This document shows positions 715 through 14,202 of a stretch of 21,859 nt of DNA, in pieces. The DNA comes from a virus. The position numbers and the translations under genes are program-made. Every line of letters begins with the position of its first letter. Within the stretch, counting starts at the first letter, position 1. Under the pieces are notes generated by a model. It did not search any database. It had not been told where the DNA came from and worked only from the letters and a program-made list of their open reading frames with translations. The DNA is taken from positions 1 through 21,859 of IMG/VR virus record IMGVR_UViG_3300033571_029222; one strand, written 5' to 3'.

Positions 715-1086
715 TTAGCAATTCCAACGGCGTAGAGCCTTGTTAATTGGGCTATCTGGATCTCGTGCATTTTCTGGATTCGTCAAACGCTTTTTCATGC
801 CACCCATTCTGGAGCAAAAAGATTTACGGCGGGCTGCACGTTTACCAGTAGGATTCTTTTCTGTAACAGCAGTTTTTAACTTAGAACCCGGATTCTCGCG
901 ACGATATGCATTTACAGCCTTTTGTGAAAGACCATCAGTTTTATCTGCCTTGTTAACTTTTTGCCAATCTTCTTGAACTTCAATCTCTTCTTTCACACAA
1001 GAACCTGGAGAGTATGGCTTTTTACCTGGAACTGGTTTATATCCAGACCAGCATCTTTCTGCAATAAAGTCTTTATAGCGTTTCAT
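715..1086 (-). CDS. Small basic conserved phage protein with Cys/Arg-rich C-terminus and capsid-targeting-like N-terminus
   Basis: A 123-residue, strongly basic protein. The ATG overlaps the end of the 902-residue gene by four bases, so translation is probably coupled. Residues 1-10 (MKRYKDFIAE) resemble the T4 capsid-targeting peptide. The C-terminal half carries SKLKTAVTEK, a KSFCSRMGGMKKRLT segment and the ending RRWNC. I recognise this as a small domain common in tailed phages and in some bacteria; its function is unknown to me. There are four cysteines in all, two near the N-terminus (C12, C30) and two in the C-terminal domain, which could bind metal but no clear zinc motif is seen. Basic charge, late context and the leader suggest a DNA-associated internal head protein (inference). 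Confidence 0.75.
   Translation of the reverse strand: MKRYKDFIAERCWSGYKPVPGKKPYSPGSCVKEEIEVQEDWQKVNKADKTDGLSQKAVNAYRRENPGSKLKTAVTEKNPTGKRAARRKSFCSRMGGMKKRLTNPENARDPDSPINKALRRWNC
1057..1086 (-). other. Candidate capsid-targeting peptide
   Basis: Encodes MKRYKDFIAE followed by Arg. It matches the pattern of the T4 internal-protein capsid-targeting sequence (MKTYQEFIAE, recalled from the T4 literature), which the gp21 prohead protease removes after Glu. The residue after the Glu is Arg rather than a small residue, which is a weakness. Confidence 0.5.
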
Positions 1087-3791
1087 AGGTAATTTCTCTT
1101 TTTAAATGTTGAAAGACTGATACCTTTCTTTTGTAACTCATCCGCTTTTTGGTCGCCTATGCTTGCGCCTGTTTCATCACCAGTCAATTCTTTAATAGGA
1201 GTTACTTTTCCTTTTTTATTAATCTTCTCGCCCATATCGCGACCAATACTCTCACCAGCACCAGCCATTGAAAGCCCAGGTTCTATGCCTTTGTCGATTT
1301 CGAAGATTTTCTGTTTGAAGTTTTCTTTGATCTTTGTGAGGGTGATCTTGGTTTTTTTACTGGTTTCGGCAATTCCGTTTTCACTTCCCGCTTCGGCTCT
1401 TCCTTCTTCACTGGTTCCGTGACTTGTGGGGCAACCGCAATGCTCGGTGATGGTAATTCTTCCTTCTTCTCTTCGACTTTGGTCGATGGTGTGGGTAGAA
1501 TCAATATTTTGTCCTGTGCCGCTCTTATTGCTCCATCCAATGGATGTGGTTCCGTCGTATTCTTTGGCCGAAACAAATTCTTCAGAAAATTGAACATTTA
1601 AGCTCTCCTTTAATTTAACCATGTAACCTTTTTCTGCTTTGACCACTTCACCGTTGTTTCGATGTGCATCTTTCGCAGCAGCATTCCTGAGTATATAGAT
1701 TCTTGGGCGACCATTTAAAGCGACATATACAGAACCGTTGTATTTTATTTTTTTAATTCCTGTATACTCTTCGCTGATTTTTCCTTTTCCGTAATTGGAG
1801 ACATTGATAGGTTCTCCTTTTCTTTCTGGATTAGGATCATGCCTACGTTTTGCAGAAACAGCAGAAGCACGTTCTTTTTTACTTAGTTGTGCTCTTTTTT
1901 CATTTGACATACACTTTGGTTTAGCTTCGCCAGGTTCTCTAGCGCAAGGACCAATCGCTTCACCTTTGCTATTGATTCTTTTCCAACCACCTTCAGGATG
2001 TTTTGGATTGAACCAATTTCTCAAATCTTCGAAAACTGGAACTTTTTTACCTAGCGTTAGCGCATCGAACGCACTTGTATCCGAGAATTGATTTATCTCT
2101 TCTTCAACTTCTTTTTCACCATTACCTGTTAACATACCAAAAGCTTGCTTCAATTCTTCCGGTGTATCAGCAGTAACACTAATAGTTATAGCTTCAAATA
2201 ATTGCTCAAATTCATTATCCAAGGATTCTTTCATCTTCAATGGCTGTGAAGAAGCACTCACGGGAATATTTGCTGCTTTCTTTTCCATTTTCTGTTGCTG
2301 CACATGAGTAGGATCTTGAACAAGTTTACCATGAACAGAATGATGTGTAACTTTTCCGTTTTTGCCATAACGACCATAACCGTAATATTGAAGACCTAAC
2401 TTTCTAGCTTCATCAGCAGCGATATCTCCTTGAGGAGCAACCATCTCTGTGCCTTTTTTCGGAACACCTAAAGTGTCTTTCTTACCTAATTCACCAGCAA
2501 TCCATTCTTTTGCTCTAGGATGTTCAGCAGACTTCTTGACGAATTCTTGAACACCCTTGAATATATCCAGCATTTCATCTTTTTTAGCTTTTACAATTTC
2601 AGGTGATGCTGTACGCAAATCTTCAGAATTATCAAACTCTCGATATTTGTCACCAAACAATTTAGCTAATTCTGGTCTTGCTGCTTGTACAGAATCCCAC
2701 TTTTCTTTACGGAGGTCTTCCGGAACGGTTCTACCGCCCCGTTGACCACGCTCAATATTTCTCTGCTTTGATACTTCATCAGCAGTATTGACCATGACCA
2801 TACCTGTTTCATATCCTAATTCTTCAAGCTCTTTCTTAATTCTTGCGATTTTCTTGGGATCATCACCTGTTCCATTAATAATCAGCCCGTTTCTACCAAG
2901 AAGGGCTAATCTTTGACGCAATTCAGTAACATCTTTTGCACGACCACGAACGATATTTCTAACTTCTTTCTCAGATTCTGGCATTCTTTTGTCCAGATTC
3001 TTTTTGTCCATCAAGAATTCAAGTGCTTTATCAGAGTTGATCTCTGTAAGACCATGCCCAGCCAAAGTATTATCAAGAACATAATCTTTACCCGAACCTG
3101 GACCACCAGCCAAGAACATAGCTTTGAAAATACCTTTGTCATGAACACCTTCAGACAAAATTAATTGAATCATATTTTCAAAGTTTTCTTTGATACCCAT
3201 ACCTTTTCTAACATCCATCATCATTTCTCTTGCCGTTTTATCTGAAACATTCGATGGAACACCTTGTTTAAATTTTGCAAAATCACTTTTACTAGCAGCT
3301 TCTCTCATTTTAGACGCAGACATACCTTCAACTCCTTCCGCATCAGGATCTCTTTCACCAGCAGAATGAACTTCTATCTTCGTAAAATTAAAATGCCCAT
3401 GAGGACCTTTTACATTATTATAACGATTTAATAATTTTTCATACTCTCCAATTCTATCTGATCCGCCAACCATATGAAGTTCAGTAACACCTTTTTTGTA
3501 TAAGGATGATGCATGAGCTAAAAAACTTGGTTGCTCAGATGAAGAAATAGCAAAATTCACACCAGGAAAGAAAGCTTTAATGTACTTTAGCTTTTCTTTA
3601 GGACTTAATGGATTTTTTTTGGGATCATGAGAGTGTGACAGAACGATTAAATGATCTGCGCCGTTCTGTTTTGCGATGGATTTGACTGTTTCCACAAGTT
3701 TTGCATGACCTGTGGTTGGAGGATTCATTCTTCCGAATGCAAAAACACACTTTTTTTGTGCTTTTTCAGCTAAAAAATCTTTAAATTTCAT
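1083..3791 (-). CDS. 902-residue multidomain protein: NMNAT-like nucleotidyltransferase, P-loop kinase and further small domains
   Basis: Starts at ATG 3791 behind a GAGG site, 39 bases after a perfect TATAAATA. Residues 1-9 are a capsid-targeting-like peptide. Residues 15-170 form an HxGH-class nucleotidyltransferase: GRMNPPTTGH (20-29) and MSASKMREA (157-165), like the ISSTxxR motif of NMN and phosphopantetheine adenylyltransferases. Residues 222-390 are a P-loop kinase (GGPGSGKD 229-236; NGTG 306-309) of PNK/zeta-toxin type. Small modules follow: ITISVTADTPEELKQAF (535-551), a basic Cys-containing domain (585-672), a beta-like module (679-726), a low-complexity region (740-820) and a conserved-looking tail (832-902). 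KE[NS][FL] segments separate the modules at 201, 521, 728 and 822. I infer a protease-processed, head-packaged polyprotein; the substrates are unknown. Confidence 0.85.
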   Translation of the reverse strand: MKFKDFLAEKAQKKCVFAFGRMNPPTTGHAKLVETVKSIAKQNGADHLIVLSHSHDPKKNPLSPKEKLKYIKAFFPGVNFAISSSEQPSFLAHASSLYKKGVTELHMVGGSDRIGEYEKLLNRYNNVKGPHGHFNFTKIEVHSAGERDPDAEGVEGMSASKMREAASKSDFAKFKQGVPSNVSDKTAREMMMDVRKGMGIKENFENMIQLILSEGVHDKGIFKAMFLAGGPGSGKDYVLDNTLAGHGLTEINSDKALEFLMDKKNLDKRMPESEKEVRNIVRGRAKDVTELRQRLALLGRNGLIINGTGDDPKKIARIKKELEELGYETGMVMVNTADEVSKQRNIERGQRGGRTVPEDLRKEKWDSVQAARPELAKLFGDKYREFDNSEDLRTASPEIVKAKKDEMLDIFKGVQEFVKKSAEHPRAKEWIAGELGKKDTLGVPKKGTEMVAPQGDIAADEARKLGLQYYGYGRYGKNGKVTHHSVHGKLVQDPTHVQQQKMEKKAANIPVSASSQPLKMKESLDNEFEQLFEAITISVTADTPEELKQAFGMLTGNGEKEVEEEINQFSDTSAFDALTLGKKVPVFEDLRNWFNPKHPEGGWKRINSKGEAIGPCAREPGEAKPKCMSNEKRAQLSKKERASAVSAKRRHDPNPERKGEPINVSNYGKGKISEEYTGIKKIKYNGSVYVALNGRPRIYILRNAAAKDAHRNNGEVVKAEKGYMVKLKESLNVQFSEEFVSAKEYDGTTSIGWSNKSGTGQNIDSTHTIDQSRREEGRITITEHCGCPTSHGTSEEGRAEAGSENGIAETSKKTKITLTKIKENFKQKIFEIDKGIEPGLSMAGAGESIGRDMGEKINKKGKVTPIKELTGDETGASIGDQKADELQKKGISLSTFKKRNYL
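1283..1597 (-). CDS. Nested out-of-frame ORF (104 residues), candidate overprinted gene
   Basis: Lies wholly inside the 902-residue gene in another frame of the same strand. ATG 1597 is preceded by AAAGGAG with a 7-base gap, one of the best Shine-Dalgarno sites in the window. The product has an amphipathic start (MFNFLKNLFRPK), a middle with DGAIRAAQDKILILP, and a long Pro/Lys/Glu/Ser-rich, probably disordered tail ending in a basic KKTSNRKSSKSTKA. The outer frame over the same bases (residues 732-836) is low-complexity Gly/Ser/Thr/Glu, and the conserved-looking outer tail resumes about where the nested ORF stops. Both frames being open could be chance. The start site and natural-looking composition favour real expression, possibly of a basic head or membrane-associated protein. 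Confidence 0.45.
   Translation of the reverse strand: MFNFLKNLFRPKNTTEPHPLDGAIRAAQDKILILPTPSTKVEEKKEELPSPSIAVAPQVTEPVKKEEPKREVKTELPKPVKKPRSPSQRSKKTSNRKSSKSTKA
1605..1611 (-). promoter_or_regulatory. Strong Shine-Dalgarno site before the nested ORF
   Basis: AAAGGAG on the minus strand, 7 bases before ATG 1597. In the outer frame the same bases form the AAG-GAG-AGC-TTA codons for KESL, whereas the other KESL (residues 521-524) uses AAA-GAA-TCC-TTG. The codon choice that creates the site is therefore not forced by the outer protein. Confidence 0.5.
3762..3791 (-). other. Candidate capsid-targeting peptide
   Basis: Encodes MKFKDFLAE followed by Lys at the start of the 902-residue protein. It resembles the T4 capsid-targeting sequence with its gp21 cleavage site after Glu. 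Further Glu-ending segments of the same style occur inside the protein at 3150-3191 (ending ILSE/G), 2193-2231 (ending LFE/A) and 1299-1328 (ending IFE/I). Confidence 0.5.
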
Positions 3792-3821: not shown

Positions 3822-4844
3822 TTATGTTTTATTTATAAAACTTTTCAAGTCATCAGAATCTCTTCTAGTATTAATAGCTTCAGCCCTGGGAAACGGATTA
3901 GCCTCATTATAATCATTTATGAGTAATCTTTTCGTATTCAAAAGACCCATTATTAATCCATAATTTCTAAATCCTAAAGTATCCAATATGTCGCGAGTTT
4001 CTTTTTCTATATTATATGATCTGGCTGTAACGAAAATTATTTGACTTCCTTTTTCTTGTTCCTTGAGTATGGCATCAACATTATTTTCTAGTGGTTGAGG
4101 TTTAGTATAATCAAACTTGGGTTGAGATTTCAAAATAGTTCCATCAATATCACAAAATATTACATTTTTATTATTATAATCGAACCAATCTTCAGCGGTT
4201 CCAACATCAATATAATCTCTAACAGCCTTTCTCATAAAAATTTCATTATTATTTAATAAGTGTGTGATCACATCTGAAACAAATATCTCTTTTGAATATT
4301 GCTTCACTTTTAGAAAGGCATCTTTATACGACTCAACACTCTGAAATTTATATGCTCCAACACAAAACGTATCAGATACAACATTTTTCTCTATGATATT
4401 TGTTATGATATCTTGTTCATTATAAATCACAAAACTCTTAGATGACAGTTTTTTTAAGACATTATGTTCTCGGATATTTGATGTACAAATATAGTTACCA
4501 TCTGTTATATCATGATTAAAAAAACTATCACAATCTTTAATCAGGAATTCTCCTGTTATATTTCTGTTTTTCAATATTTGATATACAGTATCAGCAGGTC
4601 CAAGAGTAGGTTCTTCTAATACAACAATATCAACATTATCACCGAATTCATGTTTTATAAATTTTGTTGCTCTGTATGCATTCTCATGTTCTTTTAATAT
4701 GCCAACAGTTATTTGATATTTACCATAAAATTGCTTTACGGCATTCATCAGCATCAGTTCGTGTTTATAATCATAAAGTAGATATTTCGGTCTCATGCCT
4801 GGAAATCTACTCGACATACCTGCTGCTGGAACAATAATATTCAT
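3822..4844 (-). CDS. Sugar/phospho-substituent nucleotidyltransferase fused to a HAD phosphatase
   Basis: ATG 4844 gives 340 residues and a four-base ATGA overlap with the kinase gene upstream; a GTG at 4859 is an alternative. Residues 1-220 are a nucleotidyltransferase: AAGMSSRF (7-14), K20, KDCDS (103-107) and IDVGTAEDW (212-220). Residues 226-330 are a HAD domain: DIDGT (232-236, catalytic Asp 232 and 234), VTAR (272-275) and LINDY (308-312). The first domain should join an NTP to a phosphorylated sugar or phospho-alcohol; the HAD domain should remove a phosphate. Next to an APH/LicA-like kinase it resembles the LicA-LicC (choline kinase, phosphocholine cytidylyltransferase) pairing. The substrate is unproven. 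This is the last gene of the glycan island. Confidence 0.8.
   Translation of the reverse strand: MNIIVPAAGMSSRFPGMRPKYLLYDYKHELMLMNAVKQFYGKYQITVGILKEHENAYRATKFIKHEFGDNVDIVVLEEPTLGPADTVYQILKNRNITGEFLIKDCDSFFNHDITDGNYICTSNIREHNVLKKLSSKSFVIYNEQDIITNIIEKNVVSDTFCVGAYKFQSVESYKDAFLKVKQYSKEIFVSDVITHLLNNNEIFMRKAVRDYIDVGTAEDWFDYNNKNVIFCDIDGTILKSQPKFDYTKPQPLENNVDAILKEQEKGSQIIFVTARSYNIEKETRDILDTLGFRNYGLIMGLLNTKRLLINDYNEANPFPRAEAINTRRDSDDLKSFINKT
3830..3837 (-). promoter_or_regulatory. T4-type late promoter TATAAATA
   Basis: An exact TATAAATA on the minus strand, inside the last codons of the nucleotidyltransferase-HAD gene and 39 bases before ATG 3791. T4 late promoters consist of this octamer at -10 and are read by host RNA polymerase with gp55, gp33 and the sliding clamp. 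It would separate late expression of the 902-residue gene and what follows from expression of the glycan island. Confidence 0.7.
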
Positions 4845-5593
4845 TTCATTTCTTCCCACAATTTTTTTATTTGTTTCATTAAAAAGTTGTAATCTTTATC
4901 ATTTTTTCGACAGTGCTCTAAAACCCGAAAAAGCATTAATATTATAAATCCATTATTATTCGAGATGGGAAATCTTGTTACTATTCTATTTTCCAAATCA
5001 CCGAGTTTAACATCCAATTTCAAGTTATCATTCCGAAGAAACCATTTACAGTTTAAATCTTGTCGCAACTTCGCAATGTCAAAAACATATGAATCATACT
5101 CCGTCTGCACACAATCAATTAGAAAAAAATCATCTTCTGTTTTTAGTATATTTTCTAAAGTTAAATCGCCATGGTAAACTGAGGTTGGAAGCTTTAGAGG
5201 CATTTTTTCCAGAAGTTGTTCTACAGTAAAAGGCAAATCATATTTCACATCAAAATTTTTGATTTTTTTCAGAATTATTTCTGAATAATCTTTCTCTTTG
5301 GCACTCGTTGAAAATTCAGATAGAATTTTTTCGAGAAAATTAAAAATACTCTCTATGCCGTGTGACCTGAGATAATTTTTCATATCTAGTCCATGGATAT
5401 ACTCCATATCCAATATATTTTCAGCATGATAATATATCTTAGGAACAGGATAATTCAATTTTAGAAGTTCAGTCATTCTTTCACAATTTCTGTGAATATT
5501 GTTAATTTTTCTAACGAATAATCCTTGTTGATTTTTCATCAGAAAAACTTCACTTCCAGAATGACCAGAAAATTTCTTTACTTCTTTATCCAT
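4841..5593 (-). CDS. APH/choline-kinase-like small-molecule kinase
   Basis: 250 residues starting at ATG 5593, overlapping the upstream gene by 16 bases. It has the aminoglycoside-phosphotransferase/choline-kinase fold signature: YHGDLTLENIL (140-150) is the Brenner catalytic loop with D143 and N148, and FLID (157-160) supplies the metal-binding Asp160. The N-lobe contains FVRKI with the likely ATP-binding Lys29, and MEYIHG (63-68) is the hinge. Family members phosphorylate choline, ethanolamine, sugars or antibiotics. Here, directly before a nucleotidyltransferase, the likely role is to phosphorylate a sugar or amino-alcohol for activation as a nucleotide conjugate (inference). Antibiotic resistance is unlikely in this setting. 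The gene is AT-rich. Confidence 0.75.
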   Translation of the reverse strand: MDKEVKKFSGHSGSEVFLMKNQQGLFVRKINNIHRNCERMTELLKLNYPVPKIYYHAENILDMEYIHGLDMKNYLRSHGIESIFNFLEKILSEFSTSAKEKDYSEIILKKIKNFDVKYDLPFTVEQLLEKMPLKLPTSVYHGDLTLENILKTEDDFFLIDCVQTEYDSYVFDIAKLRQDLNCKWFLRNDNLKLDVKLGDLENRIVTRFPISNNNGFIILMLFRVLEHCRKNDKDYNFLMKQIKKLWEEMK

Positions 5594-6276
5594 TCTTCAT
5601 AATCTTCTCTAATCAAAGAATGTGGTGTTCCATTATGTGGACCAGGAGGAAAAGGATTATTCATATCTACATAAAAAAGATTTTCTCCCACTAAACCATG
5701 CAATTTTAATTGAGCACTCGTCATATCCTCACCGATCATTTGCACTCCTTGATTGTAAAATAAATCTCTGTTCCTATAAACAGTCATTCTTTTATCCATG
5801 TTTATAGAAGAGCTAAAAGCAAATTGATCGTTACCAAAGTCTCTTGTGGGTACCATTCTACAATGTGGCATATACATTTTAGAGGGATCTATTTTTTCGA
5901 ATGGTATTCGCAAATTCAATGCATAATCAGTTCTACTTTTAATCACCCAATCATAAACAAAATTATTTTCTTGTTCATGTTCCTTTTTTAACCAACAAGA
6001 TTTTTCCATGGAATAAAGTGCTGCAACGGTAAAACGAGCTGGCCATTTATGAGGATTTGGTGTATTTGTGTATATCTGATCAAAATTGTCTTTTAAGACT
6101 GGTTCTATCACATAAGAAATTGGATTATAAAGTTTGATAAGATCTTCAGACTCAGGAAATTCCCAGGTGTGTATAAAGACATCTACATCATAAAAAGATA
6201 ACAAGTTCTTTTTATAATATTCATAGCCTTGTTTAAATGATCTAGCTTGTCCAGAAAAGCAAAGTGCTATTTTCAT
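5578..6276 (-). CDS. Putative glycosyltransferase-like protein (SGQxRSF type)
   Basis: 232 residues, starting with a four-base ATGA overlap with the upstream gene. The N-terminus MKIALCFSGQARSF followed by VDVFIHTW (31-38), and KSRTDYAL (113-120) further on, mark a family of putative glycosyltransferases found in polysaccharide loci of bacteria and in aquatic phages. The RTD (115-117) probably corresponds to a GT-A-type metal-binding position. The assignment is from recalled pattern only; donor and acceptor sugars are unknown. Its place among six to eight sugar-modifying genes supports the role. Confidence 0.6.
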   Translation of the reverse strand: MKIALCFSGQARSFKQGYEYYKKNLLSFYDVDVFIHTWEFPESEDLIKLYNPISYVIEPVLKDNFDQIYTNTPNPHKWPARFTVAALYSMEKSCWLKKEHEQENNFVYDWVIKSRTDYALNLRIPFEKIDPSKMYMPHCRMVPTRDFGNDQFAFSSSINMDKRMTVYRNRDLFYNQGVQMIGEDMTSAQLKLHGLVGENLFYVDMNNPFPPGPHNGTPHSLIREDYEEWIKK

Positions 6277-7085
6277 TTTGTGTACTCATCTCTCAAAATT
6301 AAAGTTGAAGCTAATGTTGATTTTGGAGGAGGATCTTTATGGTCAAAAACTGAATGATGTCTATGTGTTTTATTGGACAAAATCCACATTTCATCTTTAA
6401 TTCTGTCCGAAAAAAAGTGAGGAAAATTATTTTCGCGTCTATAACTTTCCCACCAATTGCTATCTAGAGGTGAGGATAAAGTTTTTATGTAACTAGAATT
6501 TGCCCACCAATAATTTCCAGAAAAATGTGGAGAAGGCCATCGAGTGTAATTTGCACCCACGATATCTACATTTTTTTCACTTAAAATATCTAAACAATTG
6601 GCGTGATTCTCTAAAACAGACCAATCTAAAAATTTTCTCCAGTGAAAATAGTTGATTAGAACATCATATCCAAAATCGTTGTCATTTTTATCCAAGTGTC
6701 TTTTTAAGGAGGTTACTCCTTTGGCATGAAAATATAACACTTCGAAATCATCAGATGCTTCATTACAATCATTCCATATTTTCTGTAAGGTTGATGTTTC
6801 TGTTATGAAATTGCCCTTCTTAGAATTGAAATTTTTTAGTTCCTCATCTTTATTCGGTTTTTTGTACCATGTACATTGTACATTACAACGAAGTATTTTT
6901 TCTCGATAATTTTTTAAAATTGACAAAAAACAGTCCAGATCTTCTTCTTCACCTACTGCGGTAATATTAATTGTGTCTATTTTTTTATCTAAAGAACAAT
7001 CTCGTATGGTTTTAAATTGATCTAAGAAAATGGAAATCCAGTGTTTATCATCTGTTAGATATATGTGGTAATAGGCTTGTATCAT
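6273..7085 (-). CDS. Putative glycan-modifying (glycosyltransferase-like) protein with HAKG motif
   Basis: 270 residues; ATG 7085 overlaps the upstream stop by four bases and its own stop overlaps the next start. YFHAKGVTS (118-126) and a later HFSGNYWWANSSYI segment are typical of an uncharacterised family in bacterial polysaccharide loci and large aquatic viruses, usually treated as glycosyltransferase-like. No clear DxD motif can be pinned down. The N-terminus reads like a short alpha/beta nucleotide-sugar-binding half (strands at YYHIYL and INITAVG). Function is inferred from context; specificity is unknown. Confidence 0.55.
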   Translation of the reverse strand: MIQAYYHIYLTDDKHWISIFLDQFKTIRDCSLDKKIDTINITAVGEEEDLDCFLSILKNYREKILRCNVQCTWYKKPNKDEELKNFNSKKGNFITETSTLQKIWNDCNEASDDFEVLYFHAKGVTSLKRHLDKNDNDFGYDVLINYFHWRKFLDWSVLENHANCLDILSEKNVDIVGANYTRWPSPHFSGNYWWANSSYIKTLSSPLDSNWWESYRRENNFPHFFSDRIKDEMWILSNKTHRHHSVFDHKDPPPKSTLASTLILRDEYTK

Positions 7086-7756
7086 TTGTTTACTAATAAT
7101 CTATTGAACGGTTTTTTACCATTTTTCAGAAAGACCACCATACTATCATGAAAACACACGCCCGTCAAATCGTTACATATTGACAATAATTTATGATCTA
7201 TATTTCTTCTATCTGATGAATCGATATGCTGATAATTGATGAGATCAGAAATTCTTTTGGAGTATTCGATAAACGAATTTCTATCATAAAGTGATGAACC
7301 AAATGATCTATAGTAGCTAGTATGTGTATCTTCGCAAATTAATACACCATCTTTTTTGATATGAGGAAAAACTCTTTCGAATGTTACTATTTGCTGTTGC
7401 ATTGTATGACCACCATCATCGATCAAAACATCAATTTCTGGATATTTCTGTAAAAAAGAGTTCCAAAATTCATGACTTTCTTGATCACCAATAACTATAT
7501 CAATATTTTCATCATAAAAAGGCTTATGGTTCATAACTGCAGGATCTACGTCAATACCGATGATTTTAGCTTCTGGTCCTAGAAACTTTCTCCACATTTG
7601 TATGCTACCGCCAGACTGAACGCCGATTTCAACCAATGTTATGGGCTTATTGATGTATTTTGAACAATAATTTTCATATACATCGAAATAAGGATCCCAT
7701 TTATCTGAGCCTAGAGTTAGTTCATTATGAAAAATTTCTCTAATTCTACTCATCAT
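7082..7756 (-). CDS. SAM-dependent methyltransferase (sugar O-methyltransferase-like)
   Basis: ATG 7756 overlaps the upstream stop by one base (TGATG) with GAGGAG in front. ATG 7753 and TTG 7759 are alternatives. The 224-residue product has a class I methyltransferase core: LVEIGVQSGGSIQMW (41-55, SAM loop), GIDVDP (67-72) and LIDDGGHT (111-118). The Asp-Asp-Gly-Gly-His motif is typical of the macrolide-sugar O-methyltransferase (MycE-like) and cephalosporin-hydroxylase-like group, where it helps bind metal. The likely role is O-methylation of a sugar, in line with the neighbouring C-methyltransferase and dehydratase. Acceptor unknown. Confidence 0.75.
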   Translation of the reverse strand: MMSRIREIFHNELTLGSDKWDPYFDVYENYCSKYINKPITLVEIGVQSGGSIQMWRKFLGPEAKIIGIDVDPAVMNHKPFYDENIDIVIGDQESHEFWNSFLQKYPEIDVLIDDGGHTMQQQIVTFERVFPHIKKDGVLICEDTHTSYYRSFGSSLYDRNSFIEYSKRISDLINYQHIDSSDRRNIDHKLLSICNDLTGVCFHDSMVVFLKNGKKPFNRLLVNK

Positions 7757-8961
7757 CAATTCTCCTCTATTTTTTGCTCAGGAAAATACTTAACAAAAAT
7801 GTCTTTATTTTCTGGACGAAGTTTTTTAATTTTTGCTTTCATTTCTGTATGAAAGTTCCACGCCAATGGAATAAAACAAATCGATTGATTCTTATAGTTA
7901 TCTAAAAGATCCATTCCACGAATCAAAACAGAACTTCCTGGTGTATAAAGTCCCTGCTTTAAAGGATTTTCATCTATGATAAAGTCTGGCGATTCATTAC
8001 AAAAATTCAATAAAGTATTTCCTTTTGCTGGTGCACCTAATCCGATTACAGGAATTCCAGAACTTCGATACATTTTAATTTTATTTGCTACATATTCGGC
8101 AACAGAAATACATTTTTTAGCGTAATCATCATAGGTTTTTTCTGTATACAAGCCTTTTTTATGTTCCATAGAAATCAAGTTTTCTATGACTTTAGGTGCT
8201 TTTAAATTTTTAGATATGATAAAAATGTAGCTTGTTCCATGAACAGGCGATTTAACAACATCAATTAAATTTAAGCCAGCTCTTTTACATAGAGCATCAA
8301 TAGATTTGACATTATAAAAAGATAAATGCTCATGATAAATTGTATCAAACTCTCCGTTCAAGATCATATCTGCTTGTGAGGTTGTCGCAAACATCAAACT
8401 ATCTTTATGCATGACCTCACGAATATTTTGCAGCAATTTCAGTTGATCGAAATTGTGAGCAAAAGCGTTTTGACACACGATAACATCAAATTTCTGTTCA
8501 AATTCTTTTCCGGTAAAATAGCCACAAACAACTTTATGTCTTTGCGATGATGTTGGATAAAGATTTTCCGCTGGATCAACGCCGAAAGTTTCTGCGCCAT
8601 GATTCTGAAAATAATTTAATTGACTACCATCATTACAACCAATATCTAGAACAGTTCTCGGCTTTGTTCCATATTTTTCAGCAGCAAATTGTGCAAACCA
8701 ATCGAAATATTCTAATTGTGATTTCGCTGTGCCCGAAACATACAAATAATCTTTAAACATCAAATCAGGATTGACGCGATGTGTTAGTTGAACATGGTAG
8801 CAATGTTCACAGCGAACAATCGCTAAAGGATAAATCTCTTGTATTTCATCTTTGCTTTTTTTATAAGAATTTGCGAGAGGTTGATCCTTCAAATCCAACA
8901 CAGGAATTAAAGTATCGTGCCCACATGCAATACAATTATCAATTGATTCTACATTAGCCAT
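7756..8961 (-). CDS. Nucleotide-sugar C-methyltransferase (TylCIII/NovU-type)
   Basis: 401 residues with the three-part layout of sugar C-methyltransferases. First comes an N-terminal zinc-binding domain with paired cysteines (C10/C13 and C51/C54). Next is a SAM-binding core, VLDIGCNDGSQLNYF (104-118), FGVDP (126-130) and VCQNAFAHN (162-170). Then HEHLSFY (210-216), and a C-terminal domain with GLGAPAKGNTLLNF. TylCIII, NovU and TcaB9 methylate a carbon of a 4-keto-deoxy sugar nucleotide, the product of the neighbouring dehydratase. The ATG lies 12 bases inside the end of the dehydratase gene, so the two are probably translationally coupled. This gene and the dehydratase look GC-richer than the genes downstream. 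Confidence 0.85.
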   Translation of the reverse strand: MANVESIDNCIACGHDTLIPVLDLKDQPLANSYKKSKDEIQEIYPLAIVRCEHCYHVQLTHRVNPDLMFKDYLYVSGTAKSQLEYFDWFAQFAAEKYGTKPRTVLDIGCNDGSQLNYFQNHGAETFGVDPAENLYPTSSQRHKVVCGYFTGKEFEQKFDVIVCQNAFAHNFDQLKLLQNIREVMHKDSLMFATTSQADMILNGEFDTIYHEHLSFYNVKSIDALCKRAGLNLIDVVKSPVHGTSYIFIISKNLKAPKVIENLISMEHKKGLYTEKTYDDYAKKCISVAEYVANKIKMYRSSGIPVIGLGAPAKGNTLLNFCNESPDFIIDENPLKQGLYTPGSSVLIRGMDLLDNYKNQSICFIPLAWNFHTEMKAKIKKLRPENKDIFVKYFPEQKIEEN

Positions 8962-9983
8962 CTGTCATTCTCCAAATACCAATCACTCACTTGTTTAATT
9001 CTCTCAGAAAATGCTACCCTAGGTTCCCATCCAAGACTTCTCATTAATCCACCATCAAGTGCATATCTCAAATCGTGTCCAGGTCTGCTCGAATGGAAAT
9101 CTACCATTTCATAAATCAATTCTTTTCCTTGTGCATCAGCAACAAGTTTAGCGAGGGTTAGATTGTCAACTTCTTCTTTACCAACGATATTGAATTTCGC
9201 ACATTTCGCATGACCATAGTCCATGGAAGGAACTGGTTTATTTTTAACCAAAAATAGAAGTGCATCAGCTACATCGGCCGCATGAATATAGAATCGACTT
9301 CCAGCTTGTGTTCTAGTGTGATCTGCATGGATAAAGATTTTTTCACCTTTACGAACTCGATCAATACACAGAGGAATAAATTTCTCTGGTGTCTGCCTCT
9401 CACCGAAAACATTCATTGTATGAGTGATCATCATTGGAATTTTATATGTGTTTTCATATGCAACACATAGTTCTTCGGCGCCAGCTTTTGATGCGGAGTA
9501 TGGATTTGTAGAATTGTATCGATCTCGCTCTTTATATGCAACACCTGGAGGTGCAACACCAAAAATTTCATCGGTGCTAAAGTATAAGAAAGTTTCTAGT
9601 TGATATGGAAGTTTTCTTGCAAACTCTAGAAGATGAGCGGTACCGATAGTGTTATCAAAAATGAATTCCATCGGATGAGTAATCGACCTATCTACATGTG
9701 AAGATGCAGCTAGATGCAAAATTACATCAATATTTCCGTGTTTATGAAGAAAGTTTTGTGTAATAGGATTAATCTCAGCTTTCAAATCATGAAAGACTAC
9801 ATTAACTCTCTTTTGCACTTCTTTATCATAACTTTCCAAAACTTCATGAAGCCGATTTAAATTACCAGAATAATCTAGTCGATCAATCGTGGTAATTTTC
9901 CAGTCTGTGACTCGAATCAAAAGATCAATAACATGATGTGCAATAAATCCTGCGCCACCTGTGATTAAAACATGCTTACTCAT
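8949..9983 (-). CDS. rmlB: dTDP-glucose 4,6-dehydratase-like extended SDR enzyme
   Basis: 344 residues, close to the usual RmlB length. The NAD-binding loop GGAGFIAHH is at 9-17. SSHVDRSI (94-101), STDEIFG (136-142) with the catalytic Thr-Asp-Glu triad, and YSASK (162-166) are the signature residues of nucleotide-diphospho-glucose 4,6-dehydratases. The enzyme makes a 4-keto-6-deoxy sugar nucleotide in the cytoplasm, the entry step for many deoxysugars, and fits directly with the adjacent C-methyltransferase. ATG 9983 overlaps the preceding gene by eight bases. No RmlA, RmlC or RmlD was seen, so the nucleotide sugar must come from the host or from the nucleotidyltransferase at the end of the island. 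The gene symbol is given by family, not by proven specificity. Confidence 0.85.
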   Translation of the reverse strand: MSKHVLITGGAGFIAHHVIDLLIRVTDWKITTIDRLDYSGNLNRLHEVLESYDKEVQKRVNVVFHDLKAEINPITQNFLHKHGNIDVILHLAASSHVDRSITHPMEFIFDNTIGTAHLLEFARKLPYQLETFLYFSTDEIFGVAPPGVAYKERDRYNSTNPYSASKAGAEELCVAYENTYKIPMMITHTMNVFGERQTPEKFIPLCIDRVRKGEKIFIHADHTRTQAGSRFYIHAADVADALLFLVKNKPVPSMDYGHAKCAKFNIVGKEEVDNLTLAKLVADAQGKELIYEMVDFHSSRPGHDLRYALDGGLMRSLGWEPRVAFSERIKQVSDWYLENDRWLM

Positions 9984-10662
9984 TGATATATTCTCCTGTG
10001 GGGGCGATTACTCCCTCAATTCCTATAGGTTCAACTGTTACCGTTTTATACATATGCAAATTTTTATAGTATGAATGTTCAACATCGATTCCATACTGCA
10101 AACAATCATTGAAAATCATTGGAAGCTTTGATTGAAAATAATCGAGAAGGCTTTCATCCATATGCCATAATCTCAATTTAAAAAGTTTATTTACACCAGA
10201 TTTTTCTTGTGCTTCTTTTGACATCCATGAATCTACTTCATGTGCAAAAACAAAAGCGTTTTCATATTCATCTCGATTTAAAATGAAATTATCATTGAAT
10301 TTATATCTACCAGATACTTTATAATATCTTTTTGTTCGTGACTTATTTTTTGAATATGAATCTAATGCGATGATGAAGCTTAATGTTTCAGCTATACTTC
10401 TTAGTCCAACACCAGAAAATTGCTTTACTTGAGGATTAGAACCTGTATACAAATATTCGACGTTCATGCTCTTCAACTCTTCAACATATTCTGATGATGG
10501 AACATCATAAGATCCATCAAACATAATTATGCGATTGTTTGGACAAACTTTATTTACAGATTTTATAGTTTCAATTGTCTGTTCGAATCTCTGCACATTA
10601 TTGAATACAGAAAGCTGTTTTACATTCAAAGCCGAATTAATAAAAAAAACTCCATCAAGCAT
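9976..10662 (-). CDS. Putative glycosyltransferase-like protein (unknown specificity)
   Basis: ATG 10662 was chosen because GAGGAAA lies just before it and it overlaps the upstream stop by eight bases; a frame open further upstream reads into that gene. The 228-residue protein has an N-terminal strand (VFFINSAL), IIMFDGS (45-51) and YYKVSGRYKFNDNF (113-126). The latter resembles the 'K-SGRY-lnd-F' segment of WavE-like and related lipopolysaccharide-synthesis proteins. No canonical DxD is obvious. Context supports a sugar-transfer role; the family assignment is tentative. Confidence 0.55.
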   Translation of the reverse strand: MLDGVFFINSALNVKQLSVFNNVQRFEQTIETIKSVNKVCPNNRIIMFDGSYDVPSSEYVEELKSMNVEYLYTGSNPQVKQFSGVGLRSIAETLSFIIALDSYSKNKSRTKRYYKVSGRYKFNDNFILNRDEYENAFVFAHEVDSWMSKEAQEKSGVNKLFKLRLWHMDESLLDYFQSKLPMIFNDCLQYGIDVEHSYYKNLHMYKTVTVEPIGIEGVIAPTGEYINE

Positions 10663-11491
10663 AATTTTCCTCAATAATTTTTCTCCATTCTGGTACTCTA
10701 TCATATTGATGGACAATTGTAAAGATTTTTCCTGTTGATGTAGTAATTTTATCATCATTCATTTTAGGTTCAGCCTCAAGAAGAAAAGGTCTGAATTGTT
10801 CTATTTTAGATGGATCAGCCGTTGTGCCTAATTGTGCTGCCCATCCATCTTCAGAATTCATATACTTACAAGTTCGTGTATATGGTGACATTGAAATCAT
10901 GAAATTGAAGGTGGATTGATCACAAATAGGAATTGGTCTATTGATTGCAGCAGTAAAAATACTAATAACCAAATCTTTCATCTGTTCTGCCCGACCTGCA
11001 AGAACACCAACATTATAAATGGTATTATTTTTATAATTCTCGTGAATATATGGACCAAAAGTTTCTAGTAAGTTTCGATTGCCCCAAGGCTCATCTTTAT
11101 ACTTCATACTCTCAGAAGCAAAAACTAAATCTTTATCTCCTAAGTTGTCTTCTAGCCATTCGATAGGATTTTTCTGAAAAATAACATCTTTAACATCAGT
11201 TGTGACTACATATCGATAATCATTTCTACATAGATGATCGTAAATATGGGCGAATCTTTCTACATGAACAGGAATTTTTCCTGGCGAATAAATTAAATTT
11301 CCTTGATCGTCTTGACCAAATCCAATAACTTTAAATCCAGATTCAATTACTTTTTTTGCAGATTCGTTGTCGCAGTTCATAAGGATGAGAAATTTATCAC
11401 CCTCAAAACCAGATTTGTTGATGGAATTCACCCAATATTTCAGAGTGTCCCAATTGTAGTTATTTGCACATCCTATAATCAAGTCTTTCAT
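10655..11491 (-). CDS. Putative GT-A glycosyltransferase, first gene of the glycan island
   Basis: 278 residues. ATG 11491 has AAGGAG (11499-11504) with a 7-base gap. VVTTDVKDVIF (95-105) provides a D99-x-x-D102 cluster at the end of a strand, the usual place of the nucleotide-sugar and metal-binding motif in GT-A enzymes. YNVGVLAGR and a late DQSTFNFMI segment also fit the GT-A acceptor half. It likely transfers a hexose from a nucleotide sugar; substrate unknown. It opens a run of nine overlapping genes, and only 30 bases separate it from the late gene before it, with no clear promoter there. Confidence 0.65.
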   Translation of the reverse strand: MKDLIIGCANNYNWDTLKYWVNSINKSGFEGDKFLILMNCDNESAKKVIESGFKVIGFGQDDQGNLIYSPGKIPVHVERFAHIYDHLCRNDYRYVVTTDVKDVIFQKNPIEWLEDNLGDKDLVFASESMKYKDEPWGNRNLLETFGPYIHENYKNNTIYNVGVLAGRAEQMKDLVISIFTAAINRPIPICDQSTFNFMISMSPYTRTCKYMNSEDGWAAQLGTTADPSKIEQFRPFLLEAEPKMNDDKITTSTGKIFTIVHQYDRVPEWRKIIEENYA

Positions 11492-11521: not shown

Positions 11522-11833
11522 CTATTGCCCTGGAGTATCCTTTTTATACTTGTTTACCAGGTGTTTTGTTCCCCACTGTCCAGCTCCAGCTACTGGAAGA
11601 ATATCTGGATTAGGGGACTTCTTTTCTTCACTTACACTTTTATGTAGTTTCACTCCAGTGACTTTCTGAACTAGATTCCATGCTTCTTTGTGTCTTTTAT
11701 TTTTTACATGATCATCGAAAGTTTTCTTTTGATTTTCATTGGCACTTCTTTTAAATTTAATTAGTTCCATAATGCCTATATTACCAGCATATGCAGCTTC
11801 ATGTAAAACTTCAAATTGTTTGAAAGTGTACAT
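11522..11833 (-). CDS. Small conserved phage protein with capsid-targeting-like N-terminus
   Basis: 103 residues; ATG 11833 shares one base with the upstream stop (TAATG). The protein starts MYTFKQFEVLHE-AAYAGN. The first part resembles the capsid-targeting peptide and LHE/A fits a gp21-type cleavage site. The rest is helical and basic (NIGIMELIKFKR, KEAWNLVQKVTGVKLHKS) and ends in a flexible tail with GAGQWGTKHLVNKYKKD. I recall similar small proteins in marine T4-like phages but know no function. It is the last gene of the late block led by the promoter at 14195, followed by the glycan island. A packaged internal protein is a reasonable guess. Confidence 0.7.
   Translation of the reverse strand: MYTFKQFEVLHEAAYAGNIGIMELIKFKRSANENQKKTFDDHVKNKRHKEAWNLVQKVTGVKLHKSVSEEKKSPNPDILPVAGAGQWGTKHLVNKYKKDTPGQ
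11798..11833 (-). other. Candidate capsid-targeting peptide (divergent)
   Basis: Encodes MYTFKQFEVLHE followed by Ala-Ala. The xFKQF core and a Leu-x-Glu/Ala cleavage-like end fit the T4 head-protease pattern, with two extra residues compared with the other three examples in the window. Confidence 0.4.
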
Positions 11834-13071
11834 TACTTACTCCAGTTTTTCTGTGCCGTGAAGTTTAAGTGACTGAATTCAAGCCTATCAACTAATTTTA
11901 CCGCACTACCTTTTAATTTATCAACGGCAACAAAACCTTCTGGATTTGTAATTCGATAACCATCTTCCGTCTGCACGAAGGTGTTTGTTACTTGTTTTAT
12001 TTGTTGAAGCTTTTTAATAATCATATTTTTAGCATCGACTAATAAATTTTGTAAATTGAAAATTGCAACCAAATCTGTTGTATTCGATCTATAAAATCTC
12101 ATCAATTCATTCTTCTCAACCATTCTTTTTTCTTTAGTGTCTTTCTTTTTGGCCGCTAAAATTTCTTTATTTAATTTATCTTCGACCCACTTAATCAATT
12201 CAACGGTATGTTTTGTAGTGTCTGTTATTTTTTGGCCTGAACGGATCTTAGAGTTATTAAAAGTTTTAATTTGTGTCTGTATAATATCGGAAGAAGAAAT
12301 TCTATTTAAAGTCATAGAATTTATTCTGGAGAAAATAGTTCCTGCTTGAGATAAAATTGATGTGATTTCTTTTGTTTCTTCTTTAGTAAATGTTACTGTT
12401 CCTGATGCATCAATAAAATATGCATCCCTAAACCAAACATCTTTTGTCTTTTTTAGATTATTAATATCAATATTGAATGATGCTTTCAAAGATTGAATAG
12501 TTTTACCTGTATAAGAAGTGTGAAAAACTATTCCCATTTTAGCCATTCTCATAGATGCAGCCAGTTTACTATCGGCCGGTACAGCATAAACAATGGTATT
12601 AGGCTGAAACACGAGATATTTTTCACCTCCAATTTCCTTTATCGCACCATCGAGATCATCCTCACCAAACATCATATCACCTTGAAGAATGCCTTCGATA
12701 CCCAGTTTCGGTAGATATGTGAGAGCAGTCTTTAATTTTTTATTTAAACCCTCGCCAGGATGATTTCGATCAATATCTTCTTCTGTATAATTTAATTTGG
12801 CATCAACATTAAAAATGCCTTTAGTGGCAACAAAAAACTTTCCATTCTCTGGATTAATTCCAGAAAATACTGCTGGTGCACCGTCCCATTTCGTTGTGAC
12901 ATTCACTTTTGAATCGGAATTACCAGCTAACATATCTCGAAGAGAGCGTAGAAAATTAATCGCATCTCTAGCACCAGGAACACCTCGATTGAGAACTTCA
13001 TCTTCGATATGCTCCAGATGAACGTTTTTTCCTTCTTTACTAGATTCGATTATAAATTCTTTGAAGTTCAT
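11833..13071 (-). CDS. Late protein with nucleotidyltransferase/ligase-like motifs and capsid-targeting-like N-terminus
   Basis: ATG 13071 was chosen (10 bases after the upstream stop, with AGG 7 bases ahead) over an extended frame that would overlap that gene by 71 bases. It gives 412 residues starting MNFKEFIIES. TTKWDGAPAVF (59-69) looks like motif I (KxDG, Lys61) of covalent nucleotidyltransferases (DNA/RNA ligases, capping enzymes). FVATKG (80-85), GILQGDMMF (127-135, resembling the DGE motif), EGFVAVDK (378-385) and SAVKLVDR (389-396) could be the later motifs, the last two resembling IV and V. A helical insert (about 225-365) lies between, which is unusual. It belongs to a large unannotated family I associate with T4-like phages. 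A ligase-type or AMP-transferring activity is inference. Confidence 0.75.
   Translation of the reverse strand: MNFKEFIIESSKEGKNVHLEHIEDEVLNRGVPGARDAINFLRSLRDMLAGNSDSKVNVTTKWDGAPAVFSGINPENGKFFVATKGIFNVDAKLNYTEEDIDRNHPGEGLNKKLKTALTYLPKLGIEGILQGDMMFGEDDLDGAIKEIGGEKYLVFQPNTIVYAVPADSKLAASMRMAKMGIVFHTSYTGKTIQSLKASFNIDINNLKKTKDVWFRDAYFIDASGTVTFTKEETKEITSILSQAGTIFSRINSMTLNRISSSDIIQTQIKTFNNSKIRSGQKITDTTKHTVELIKWVEDKLNKEILAAKKKDTKEKRMVEKNELMRFYRSNTTDLVAIFNLQNLLVDAKNMIIKKLQQIKQVTNTFVQTEDGYRITNPEGFVAVDKLKGSAVKLVDRLEFSHLNFTAQKNWSK
13045..13071 (-). other. Candidate capsid-targeting peptide
   Basis: Encodes MNFKEFIIE followed by Ser-Ser. It fits the (I/L)-x-Glu/small-residue cleavage pattern of the T4 prohead protease and the F-K-x-F core shared with three other proteins in this window. 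Confidence 0.5.
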
Positions 13072-13081
13072 TTGTTTACCT

Positions 13082-14161
13082 TTACAGTTGAAGTCCCACT
13101 TTGTCCCTAACTCTATCAAAAGCAGCCTTACTTCTAAATGTGTATACGTCATTCTTTACTGTATCTTTGGCTTCTACAGTGGCTTGCATTTTGAATTCTG
13201 GAACTCCATCTTTATTAATTCCCATTTTAACGATATTCAAATCTTGAAAACATTCACTCATTATCTCATCGAAATTAAAATCGCTTGAAGAAATGAATTT
13301 AATAAAGCCATAAACTAAATTTGTTGTTGTATAGTTAGCTTTACCCTCCTTCAATTTTTTCTTCTCAGATTCTGGAACTTTTGTCGAATCAATAATAAAA
13401 CGATTTAGAAATTCCACATATGCAGCCGTATTCGATAGAGAGATGTTTCCTAATGGTTTATCTTTATTCGCTTCTATTTTTTTGCCATCGGATGCAAAAT
13501 CAACACCACTAAACATAGTTCTAAGTTCTGATTGTGATATCTCAAAACCTCTAGCTTTATTCGAATCTCCTTTGATTAGATCACCAAAAGCGATAATAAC
13601 ACCTTCAAACATTCCATGAGTTGTTAGATTTTCAATAACTGTTAATTCTTTTTGATTTTTACGAAAGATGGGAGAATCTTTCATTCTCTGTATTCTCTCA
13701 TAAATCAAACGAGGAGCAAATGTATTTGAACCGCCAGTCAAAGCTTTCGAACTGAAACCGTAATAATGTGCATTATGAACAAAAAAATCAAATATCTCAT
13801 AGTTCGTTCTAACTGGAAACGTGATATGGTTTATCTGTCTATTTTTTAGAAATTTCATGGCAAAAAAAGGACCTAAAACTTCACCGAATTCAGTCGTGAT
13901 TACCTTAGGATCAATTTCTTGTTTAGCATTCAAATAAAAATTCTTTAATTGTTGTGATTGAATTTTTCCTTCCATGAAATCTACCAGTCCGAACAAATAC
14001 ATCTTGACAGCAACAGAAACTTTTAGCTCTTCGATTTTACCCTTTACTATCTTCGAATAATCTTTGACGGGAAATATCCAGAATTTATCATTTTGCGTTC
14101 TTACTAATTGAGGAATATCAGATTTAGGATGATTTTTGAAAAAATCTGATGGTTGAAACAT
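13082..14161 (-). CDS. Late protein of unknown function, possibly PD-(D/E)xK nuclease-like
   Basis: 359 residues from ATG 14161, with AGGG ahead and a perfect TATAAATA 34 bases upstream, so it should be a late gene. Not confidently recognised. TTEFGEVLGPF (89-99), then TNYEIFDFFVHN (119-130) and YYGFSSKALTGGSN (133-146), has the order Glu - Asp125 - SxK139 on predicted helix and strands, reminiscent of PD-(D/E)xK restriction-type nuclease cores. Ser in place of the second acidic residue weakens this. The C-terminal part is mixed and Lys-rich. A structural or packaged DNA-acting protein are both possible. It heads the block containing the ligase-like gene. Confidence 0.65.
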   Translation of the reverse strand: MFQPSDFFKNHPKSDIPQLVRTQNDKFWIFPVKDYSKIVKGKIEELKVSVAVKMYLFGLVDFMEGKIQSQQLKNFYLNAKQEIDPKVITTEFGEVLGPFFAMKFLKNRQINHITFPVRTNYEIFDFFVHNAHYYGFSSKALTGGSNTFAPRLIYERIQRMKDSPIFRKNQKELTVIENLTTHGMFEGVIIAFGDLIKGDSNKARGFEISQSELRTMFSGVDFASDGKKIEANKDKPLGNISLSNTAAYVEFLNRFIIDSTKVPESEKKKLKEGKANYTTTNLVYGFIKFISSSDFNFDEIMSECFQDLNIVKMGINKDGVPEFKMQATVEAKDTVKNDVYTFRSKAAFDRVRDKVGLQL

Positions 14162-14194: not shown

Positions 14195-14202
14195 TATTTA
14201 TA
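14195..14202 (-). promoter_or_regulatory. T4-type late promoter TATAAATA
   Basis: An exact TATAAATA on the minus strand that overlaps the TAA stop of the helicase gene, 34 bases before ATG 14161. With the site at 3830 it is one of only two exact copies I found ahead of genes. Both precede genes that lead blocks carrying capsid-targeting-like leaders. Confidence 0.7.

What the first reader, a model, noticed from the sequence alone, without database searches (positions are those of the whole stretch)
11833..13071. Unannotated late protein with ligase-type nucleotidyltransferase motifs
The order KWDG (61-64), FVATKG, GILQGDMMF, EGFV (378-381) and AVKLVD (390-395) parallels motifs I, III, IIIa, IV and V of covalent nucleotidyltransferases, with a long helical insert before the last two. 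With the packaging-type leader it could be an injected ligase, RNA-repair or AMP-transferring enzyme. Motif IIIa has Asp where ligases usually have Glu.
Basis: partly seen in the sequence, partly recalled or inferred. Interest (0 to 1): 0.68.

Follow-up and report, generated by a model that had tools for sequence, protein, structure and literature searches.

The report
Ligase-like enzyme in aquatic T4-like phages
A protein of unknown function (DUF6267), present in almost every sequenced T4-like cyanophage and in related aquatic phages, very probably has the fold and catalytic residues of RNA/DNA-joining enzymes; in this phage it is late-expressed and probably carried in the virus head, so a very common 'unknown' phage gene becomes directly testable.

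Summary
The reading frame is real but lies on the minus strand (13071→11833, 412 aa). It is Pfam DUF6267, function unknown. Across 54 diverged homologues, Lys61, Asp63, Gly64, Lys84, Asp132, Glu378, Gly379 and Lys392 are all invariant. Two confident models (window protein, pLDDT 86; a short cyanophage homologue, pLDDT 91) match only covalent nucleotidyltransferases among the top 50 solved structures, RNA ligases first (Naegleria Rnl, Z 9.1 and 8.5). Correction: FVATKG is best read as motif Ia and QGD as motif III, so the Asp-for-Glu change is in motif III. No known ligase family matches by sequence and almost nothing follows motif V, so it is a new family, not Rnl1, Rnl2 or a DNA ligase. It sits in a late-type operon (TATAAATA, conserved in relatives), carries a capsid-targeting-like leader in this lineage, and is linked, twice fused, to an NMN-adenylyltransferase-like HIGH enzyme whose cyanophage orthologue was found in virions. 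Most likely: a lysyl-AMP polynucleotide ligase for RNA or DNA ends; substrate and AMP donor unknown. Nearly all T4-like cyanophage records have it, and the 15 DUF6267 phages first tested lack a DNA ligase gene; one phage with both rules out strict replacement.

The parts
11833..13071 (-). DUF6267 protein (412 aa), predicted lysyl-nucleotidyltransferase / ligase-like enzyme
13045..13071 (-). N-terminal leader MNFKEFIIE|S, capsid-targeting-like with a gp21-type cleavage-like site (inferred)
   Evidence: leader pattern in 87 of 97 freshwater/other members; T4 CTS described in PMC9026906
13000..13020 (-). Invariant HxxHxE(D/E) element (residues 18-24) upstream of motif I; no counterpart identified in known ligases
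12880..12891 (-). Motif I KWDG (residues 61-64); Lys61 = predicted adenylylated lysine
12817..12834 (-). Motif Ia FVATKG (residues 80-85; invariant Lys84)
   Evidence: assignment by order and spacing (inference)
12676..12684 (-). Motif III QGD (residues 130-132; invariant Asp132 in place of Glu)
12586..12600 (-). NTIVY (residues 158-162), candidate motif IIIa
12511..12522 (-). HTSY (residues 184-187), alternative candidate motif IIIa
11992..12423 (-). Helical insert (about residues 217-360) between motifs IIIa and IV, variable in length
11929..11940 (-). Motif IV EGFV (residues 378-381)
11884..11904 (-). Motif V AVKLVDR (residues 390-396; invariant Lys392 and Arg396; the second Lys of classical motif V is Val/Ile)
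14195..14202 (-). T4-type late promoter element TATAAATA, 34 nt upstream of the first gene of the operon
13082..14161 (-). Upstream, probably cotranscribed gene (359 aa), no family match
11522..11833 (-). Downstream small gene (103 aa), start overlaps the DUF6267 stop; leader-like N-terminus MYTFKQFEVLHE|A
1083..3791 (-). Partner protein (902 aa): capsid-targeting-like leader + HIGH-superfamily NTase (GRMNPPTTGH...SASKMR) + P-loop kinase
3830..3837 (-). TATAAATA 39 nt upstream of the partner gene

Best explanation
DUF6267 is a new family of the covalent nucleotidyltransferase superfamily. Shown here by computation: a ligase-type fold with invariant motif I, Ia, III, IV and V residues. Inferred: Lys61 attacks the alpha-phosphate of an adenylate donor to give lysyl-AMP (motifs Ia, III, IIIa and V hold the nucleotide and metal). 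The AMP is then passed to a 5'-phosphate end, most likely of RNA (tRNA or other cleaved RNA) and possibly nicked DNA, and the end is sealed. The family has no OB fold or C-terminal domain, so the helical insert and the HxxHxED element probably take over substrate or donor binding; RLIG1 shows that a bare NTase core can work as a ligase. In this phage the protein is made late from an operon next to the replication genes, probably packaged in the head through its leader, and delivered with the DNA together with a HIGH-superfamily NTase/kinase partner. My probabilities: covalent NTase about 0.87; strand-joining ligase about 0.55; RNA preferred over DNA about 2:1; packaged in this lineage about 0.6.
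For: Invariance of all catalytic-type residues in 54 sequences down to 28% identity, with the same residues kept in 414 sequences apart from a truncated frame and a misaligned site. Two models, pLDDT 85.6/pTM 0.82 and 90.6/pTM 0.85; every one of the 50 best VIA rows for both is a covalent NTase: NgrRnl Z 9.1, rmsd 3.7, 182 aligned, and Z 8.5, rmsd 3.9, 174 aligned; then REL1, T4 Rnl1, Trl1, T4 Rnl2, DNA ligases. Profile comparison with T4 Rnl1 aligns motifs IV-V in register, E378~E227 and K392~K240 (weak). Precedent: RLIG1, an orphan family whose Dali top hit was also NgrRnl, with rmsd 4.83 over 136 residues to Rnl1, is an active single-domain RNA ligase (PMC11494293). Late element 34 nt upstream, found on the same strand in 38 of 64 relatives and on the opposite strand in 0. 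Leader in 87 of 97 freshwater/other members. HIGH NTase downstream in 75 of 94 loci, fused in S-PM2 and in the very distant L479/L480. The cyanophage partner T4-GC190 was detected in virions (PMC3037559).
Against: No sequence-level match to any ligase model or solved structure. Foldseek E-values are weak (best 0.22 and 0.046); only the VIA second look is clear, and Z about 9 is modest. I had no coordinates, so superposition of the catalytic residues in 3D was not inspected. Motif III has Asp, motif V one Lys instead of two. No substrate-binding domain follows motif V. Two DUF6267 phages also carry a recognised RNA ligase and one a DNA ligase, so its task is not simply theirs. Most cyanophage members have no leader.
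Confidence: 0.6

Rival explanations
1. A covalent nucleotidyltransferase that is not a strand-joining ligase: the lysyl-NMP is transferred to another acceptor (RNA 5' cap, a protein side chain, or a phosphorylated small molecule), in a pathway shared with the HIGH-superfamily NTase.
For: Same fold and motifs; the most constant partner found is a HIGH NTase; no separate nucleic-acid-binding domain after motif V; coexistence with true RNA or DNA ligases in some phages.
Against: Among the top structural rows RNA ligases rank above DNA ligases and capping enzymes; no capping OB domain; the P-loop kinase fused to the NTase has weak polynucleotide-kinase similarity (phrog_505, E 6e-5), which would suit nucleic-acid repair.
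Confidence: 0.27
2. It is the missing DNA ligase of T4-like cyanophages, sealing Okazaki fragments or nicks in injected or replicating DNA in place of gp30. (A sub-case of the ligase reading above, so the confidences overlap.)
For: Cyanomyoviruses lack g30 homologues (PMC2984593); fifteen DUF6267 phage records have no PF01068 or PF01653 ligase while T4, a T4-like phage and KVP40 have PF01068 and no DUF6267; DUF6267 occurs in 366-368 Synechococcus and 61 Cyanophage records versus 375 and 61 for UvsX; it lies next to gp43-uvsX-gp41.
Against: Stenotrophomonas phage DLP6 has both; late promoter and packaging leader are odd for a replication enzyme; no OB domain; the cyanobacterial control genome has an NAD+ ligase of its own. 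Presence and absence are confounded by phylogeny.
Confidence: 0.15
3. A catalytically dead or unrelated structural/internal-head protein whose resemblance to ligases is a common arrangement of two beta-sheets.
For: Weak Foldseek E-values; Z under about 8 is often non-specific (note).
Against: Invariance of exactly the catalytic set over sequences as low as about 28% identity; two models give only this superfamily in 50 of 50 rows.
Confidence: 0.1

Closest known systems
DUF6267 / PF19782, phrog_455, cyanophage T4-GC 71
   Same: The window protein is a full-length member (E 4e-109).
   Different: The family has no assigned function; this clade carries a capsid-targeting-like leader and lies in a late-type operon.
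Naegleria gruberi RNA ligase (NgrRnl, 6vt9/5cot)
   Same: Best structural match of both models; motif IV-V spacing 14 residues (E312-K326 versus E378-K392; residue roles inferred from the mutant names in the PDB titles).
   Different: 10-12% identity; the match starts at NgrRnl residue ~143, so an N-terminal part of NgrRnl has no counterpart; Glu (E227) presumed in motif III.
RLIG1 (C12orf29 / Yasminevirus)
   Same: Single-domain RNA ligase without an extra RNA-binding domain; motif set K73, D75, R89, E174, E240, K253 in the same order (PMC11494293); also found as an orphan family through remote similarity.
   Different: Biochemically proven with ATP; Arg in motif Ia and Glu in motif III; no phage-head link. 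No direct sequence comparison was made here.
T4 RNA ligase 1 (Rnl1, gp63)
   Same: Fold match Z 7.6; motifs IV-V align in register by profile comparison.
   Different: No PF09511 match; DUF6267 lacks a C-terminal domain; Rnl1 has K240 and K242 in motif V, DUF6267 only K392.
T4 Alt / IP internal head proteins
   Same: N-terminal leader of the capsid-targeting type with a cleavage-like xxE|S/A site, late-type promoter.
   Different: Packaging and cleavage not shown for DUF6267.

Membership tests
DUF6267 (PF19782) | Pfam model match above the curated cut-off | tested here: met
   366 bits versus cut-off 27, residues 16-408 over the full model
Covalent nucleotidyltransferase superfamily | Motif I KxDG with invariant Lys | tested here: met
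   K61, D63, G64 invariant
Covalent nucleotidyltransferase superfamily | Motifs Ia, III, IV, V in order with basic/acidic residues | tested here: met
   K84, D132 (Asp for Glu), E378-G379, K392 all invariant
Covalent nucleotidyltransferase superfamily | Nucleotidyltransferase fold | tested here: met
   50 of 50 best VIA rows for both models; Foldseek alone weak
Covalent nucleotidyltransferase superfamily | Lysyl-NMP intermediate | not testable with these tools
   needs a labelling assay
T4 Rnl1 family (PF09511) | Sequence model match | tested here: not met
   no PF09511 hit up to E 10; profile comparison covers only 20 columns
T4 Rnl1 family (PF09511) | C-terminal Rnl1 domain after motif V | tested here: not met
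   only 16 residues after R396
Rnl2 family (PF09414) | Sequence model match | tested here: not met
   no hit; hhalign with a T4 Rnl2 alignment finds nothing in the motifs
ATP-dependent DNA ligase | PF01068 match and OB domain with motif VI after motif V | tested here: not met
   no PF01068 hit; protein ends 20 residues after K392
NAD+-dependent DNA ligase (LigA) | PF01653 match | tested here: not met
   no hit
NAD+-dependent DNA ligase (LigA) | NMN-binding Ia domain | tested here: inconclusive
   an invariant HxxHxE(D/E) element precedes motif I but no Ia homology was shown
RLIG1 family | Sequence homology to RLIG1 | not tested
   used only as a mechanistic precedent from PMC11494293
Capsid-targeted internal head protein | CTS-like N-terminal leader | tested here: met
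   MNFKEFIIE|S; pattern in 87 of 97 freshwater/other members, mostly absent elsewhere
Capsid-targeted internal head protein | Presence in virions, cleavage by prohead protease | not testable with these tools
   literature only for the partner T4-GC190 (PMC3037559)

The most novel reading that the evidence does not exclude
A head-packaged, NAD+-coupled nucleic-acid ligase: DUF6267 takes AMP from NAD+ (leaving NMN, with the invariant HxxHxE(D/E) element as an NMN site of its own kind), and the linked or fused HIGH NTase, whose closest curated families are NMN/NaMN adenylyltransferases and which in this window is fused to a P-loop kinase as in NadR, regenerates NAD+. Both are delivered with the phage DNA.
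Probability: 0.1. Interest if true: 0.85.

Novelty: new variant of a known kind. Interest (0 to 1): 0.62.

Why it matters
DUF6267 is found in nearly all sequenced T4-like cyanophages and in pelagiphages, yet has no function, and no paper in the held library mentions it by name. A concrete catalytic hypothesis with named residues turns it into a short labelling assay. It also reopens the remark in PMC2984593 that cyanomyoviruses either have distant, unidentified homologues of DNA ligase or none. If the enzyme is carried in the virion and coupled to NAD metabolism it would be a new kind of injected repair or takeover module in some of the most abundant phages.

Tried and rejected
Sequence searches against Pfam, PHROGs, NCBIfam and PDB sequences gave only DUF6267/phrog_455 and noise (RalF_SCD E 0.12; ribosomal protein eS1 E 0.03 on the helical part). 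Profile comparison with T4 Rnl2 found no motif match. I first considered strict replacement of DNA ligase; DLP6, with both genes, rejects the strict form. Strict equivalence with RNA ligases was rejected because G001 and G004 have both. The upstream 359-aa gene has no detectable homologue at the same position in HTVC008M, DLP6, C48C1 or cyanophages, so it is not part of a universal module. The leader is not universal: absent in the MANV, short and most pelagiphage groups. The 'HLQH' short group has no NTase within the 3.5 kb examined (0 of 14), so the NTase link is not absolute. Sigma-70 promoter and terminator scans were at chance level. No tRNA in the window. Solved-structure sequence search with the HIGH NTase found only marginal NadR (E 0.4).

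Full report
WHAT IS THERE. The flagged interval encodes nothing on the plus strand. On the minus strand it is one 412-aa reading frame, 13071→11833, inside a run of minus-strand genes of a T4-like phage: gp43 polymerase, UvsX and gp41 helicase upstream (recognised by eye from the reading frames; same order annotated in S-PM2), then a 359-aa gene of no known family, then this gene, a 103-aa gene whose ATG overlaps the stop, an island of sugar/methyl/glycosyl genes, and a 902-aa protein. The ATG at 13071 has an AAAGG sequence upstream; the frame stays open to 13152, but that part overlaps the previous gene and is not conserved. The record itself is a 21,859-base virus fragment.

FAMILY. The protein is a full-length member of Pfam DUF6267 (366 bits) and phrog_455, both of unknown function. 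tblastn finds relatives in 466 of 50,697 phage records, nearly all cyanophages, plus pelagiphages, Methylophilales phages and a few others. By first word of the organism name, DUF6267 occurs in 366-368 Synechococcus and 61 Cyanophage records, against 375 and 61 for UvsX, so it is close to universal in T4-like cyanophages. It is T4-GC 71 in the cyanophage literature numbering.

CATALYTIC RESIDUES. I collected several hundred homologues and aligned 54 spanning 28-88% identity. Thirty-two columns are invariant, including K61, D63, G64, P66, K84, F87, Q130, D132, N158, Y162, H184, Y187, E378, G379, V381, K392 and R396. In 414 sequences the catalytic set is violated only by one truncated frame (L476) and by a local misalignment at K84 in two very distant proteins, which read LKSF there. 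Shuffling shows that the bare pattern is rare (182 of 200,000) but not impossible; conservation and fold carry the argument. By order and spacing I read KWDG as motif I, FVATKG as Ia, QGD as III, EGFV as IV and AVKLVDR as V. Thus the Asp-for-Glu change lies in motif III, and motif V has one Lys, not two.

FOLD. AlphaFold2 on that alignment gave pLDDT 85.6, pTM 0.82; on a 306-aa cyanophage form that lacks most of the helical insert, pLDDT 90.6, pTM 0.85. Foldseek E-values against PDB are weak (best 0.22 and 0.046), although ligases and capping enzymes dominate. In the VIA second look all 50 best rows for each model are covalent nucleotidyltransferases: Naegleria RNA ligase (Z 9.1, rmsd 3.7, 182 aligned; Z 8.5, rmsd 3.9, 174 aligned), REL1, T4 Rnl1, Trl1, T4 Rnl2, archaeal Rnl, then DNA ligases. 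The chain ranges end so that motif IV and V residues fall within one or two positions of their counterparts (for example 338 minus 326 versus 405 minus 392). I could not open the coordinates, so this is a consistency check only. Profile-profile comparison with T4 Rnl1 relatives aligns only motifs IV-V, in the expected register; with Rnl2 nothing. RLIG1 is a close precedent: an orphan family whose Dali top hit was the same Naegleria enzyme, with 4.83 A over 136 residues to Rnl1, and which proved to be a single-domain RNA ligase (PMC11494293).

NOT A KNOWN LIGASE FAMILY. No PF09511, PF09414, PF01068 or PF01653 match. The chain ends 20 residues after K392, so it has no OB fold and no Rnl1/Rnl2 C-terminal domain. 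The helical insert and the invariant HxxHxE(D/E) element at residues 18-24 are its own.

CONTEXT. (a) Late expression: only two TATAAATA elements exist in the window (about 2 expected by chance), both on the coding strand and 34 and 39 nt upstream of the ATG of the DUF6267 operon and of the 902-aa partner gene. In relatives the element upstream of the operon is on the same strand in 38 of 64 and on the opposite strand in 0 of 64 (the relatives are not independent). (b) Packaging: the leader MNFKEFIIE|S resembles T4 capsid-targeting sequences (PMC9026906) and is shared by this clade (87 of 97) and by several marine non-cyanophage members. Leaderless cyanophage members exist. The neighbouring cyanophage NTase, T4-GC190, has such a leader (MKKFSAFLTE|A) and was detected in virions by mass spectrometry (PMC3037559). 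(c) Partner: a HIGH-superfamily NTase lies downstream in 75 of 94 loci with enough flank, is fused to DUF6267 in S-PM2 and, in a very different protein, in L479/L480. Its best specific curated matches are NMN/NaMN adenylyltransferases, below cut-off (8 of 9 members to TIGR00482, best 9e-8; 6 of 9 to NadR). In the window it is fused to a P-loop kinase, an arrangement like NadR (PMC9503650); others predict NDP-sugar synthesis for some phage HIGH NTases (PMC7824862).

LIGASE CENSUS. Fifteen DUF6267 phages and Melnitz-3 have no PF01068 DNA ligase, and the fifteen have no PF01653 either; T4, a T4-like phage and KVP40 have PF01068 and no DUF6267. This fits the statement that cyanomyoviruses lack g30 (PMC2984593). 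But DLP6 has both, and two DUF6267 phages also have a recognised RNA ligase. The pattern is confounded by shared ancestry.

CONCLUSION. The claim 'ligase-type covalent nucleotidyltransferase' is well supported by computation; 'ligase of RNA or DNA ends' is the most likely specific activity but unproven; 'injected' is plausible for this lineage. It is a new family of a known superfamily.

Noticed in passing
window 3822-11491 (-): Island of about nine sugar/surface-modification genes (GDP-mannose dehydratase-like epimerase, C-methyltransferase, APH/choline-kinase-like, HAD plus nucleotidyltransferase-like, glycosyltransferase-like) between the DUF6267 operon and its NTase/kinase partner.
   Followed up: partly
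window 1283-1597 (-): A 104-aa reading frame with a strong ribosome site (AAAGGAGAG) lies in another frame inside the C-terminal part of the 902-aa partner gene (1083-3791); either overlapping genes or a frameshift that fuses two genes. No Pfam match.
   Followed up: partly
window 715-1086 (-): DUF6321 protein with a capsid-targeting-like leader (MKRYKDFIAE|R), another candidate head-packaged protein of unknown function.
   Followed up: no
L479 and L480 (Firmicutes-bin contigs): 930-aa proteins with DUF6267 + HIGH NTase + an unassigned C-terminal domain, by far the most distant relatives; two similar copies in one metagenome bin, possibly from phages.
   Followed up: partly
L440 (Stenotrophomonas phage DLP6): Same cassette (DUF6267, small gene, 'cytitidyltransferase') in a phage from soil that also has gp30 DNA ligase.
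   Followed up: partly
L085, L086, L294-L373 ('HLQH' short forms): A cyanophage subgroup carries DUF6267 among small unknown genes, with no NTase within the 3.5 kb examined (0 of 14).
   Followed up: no
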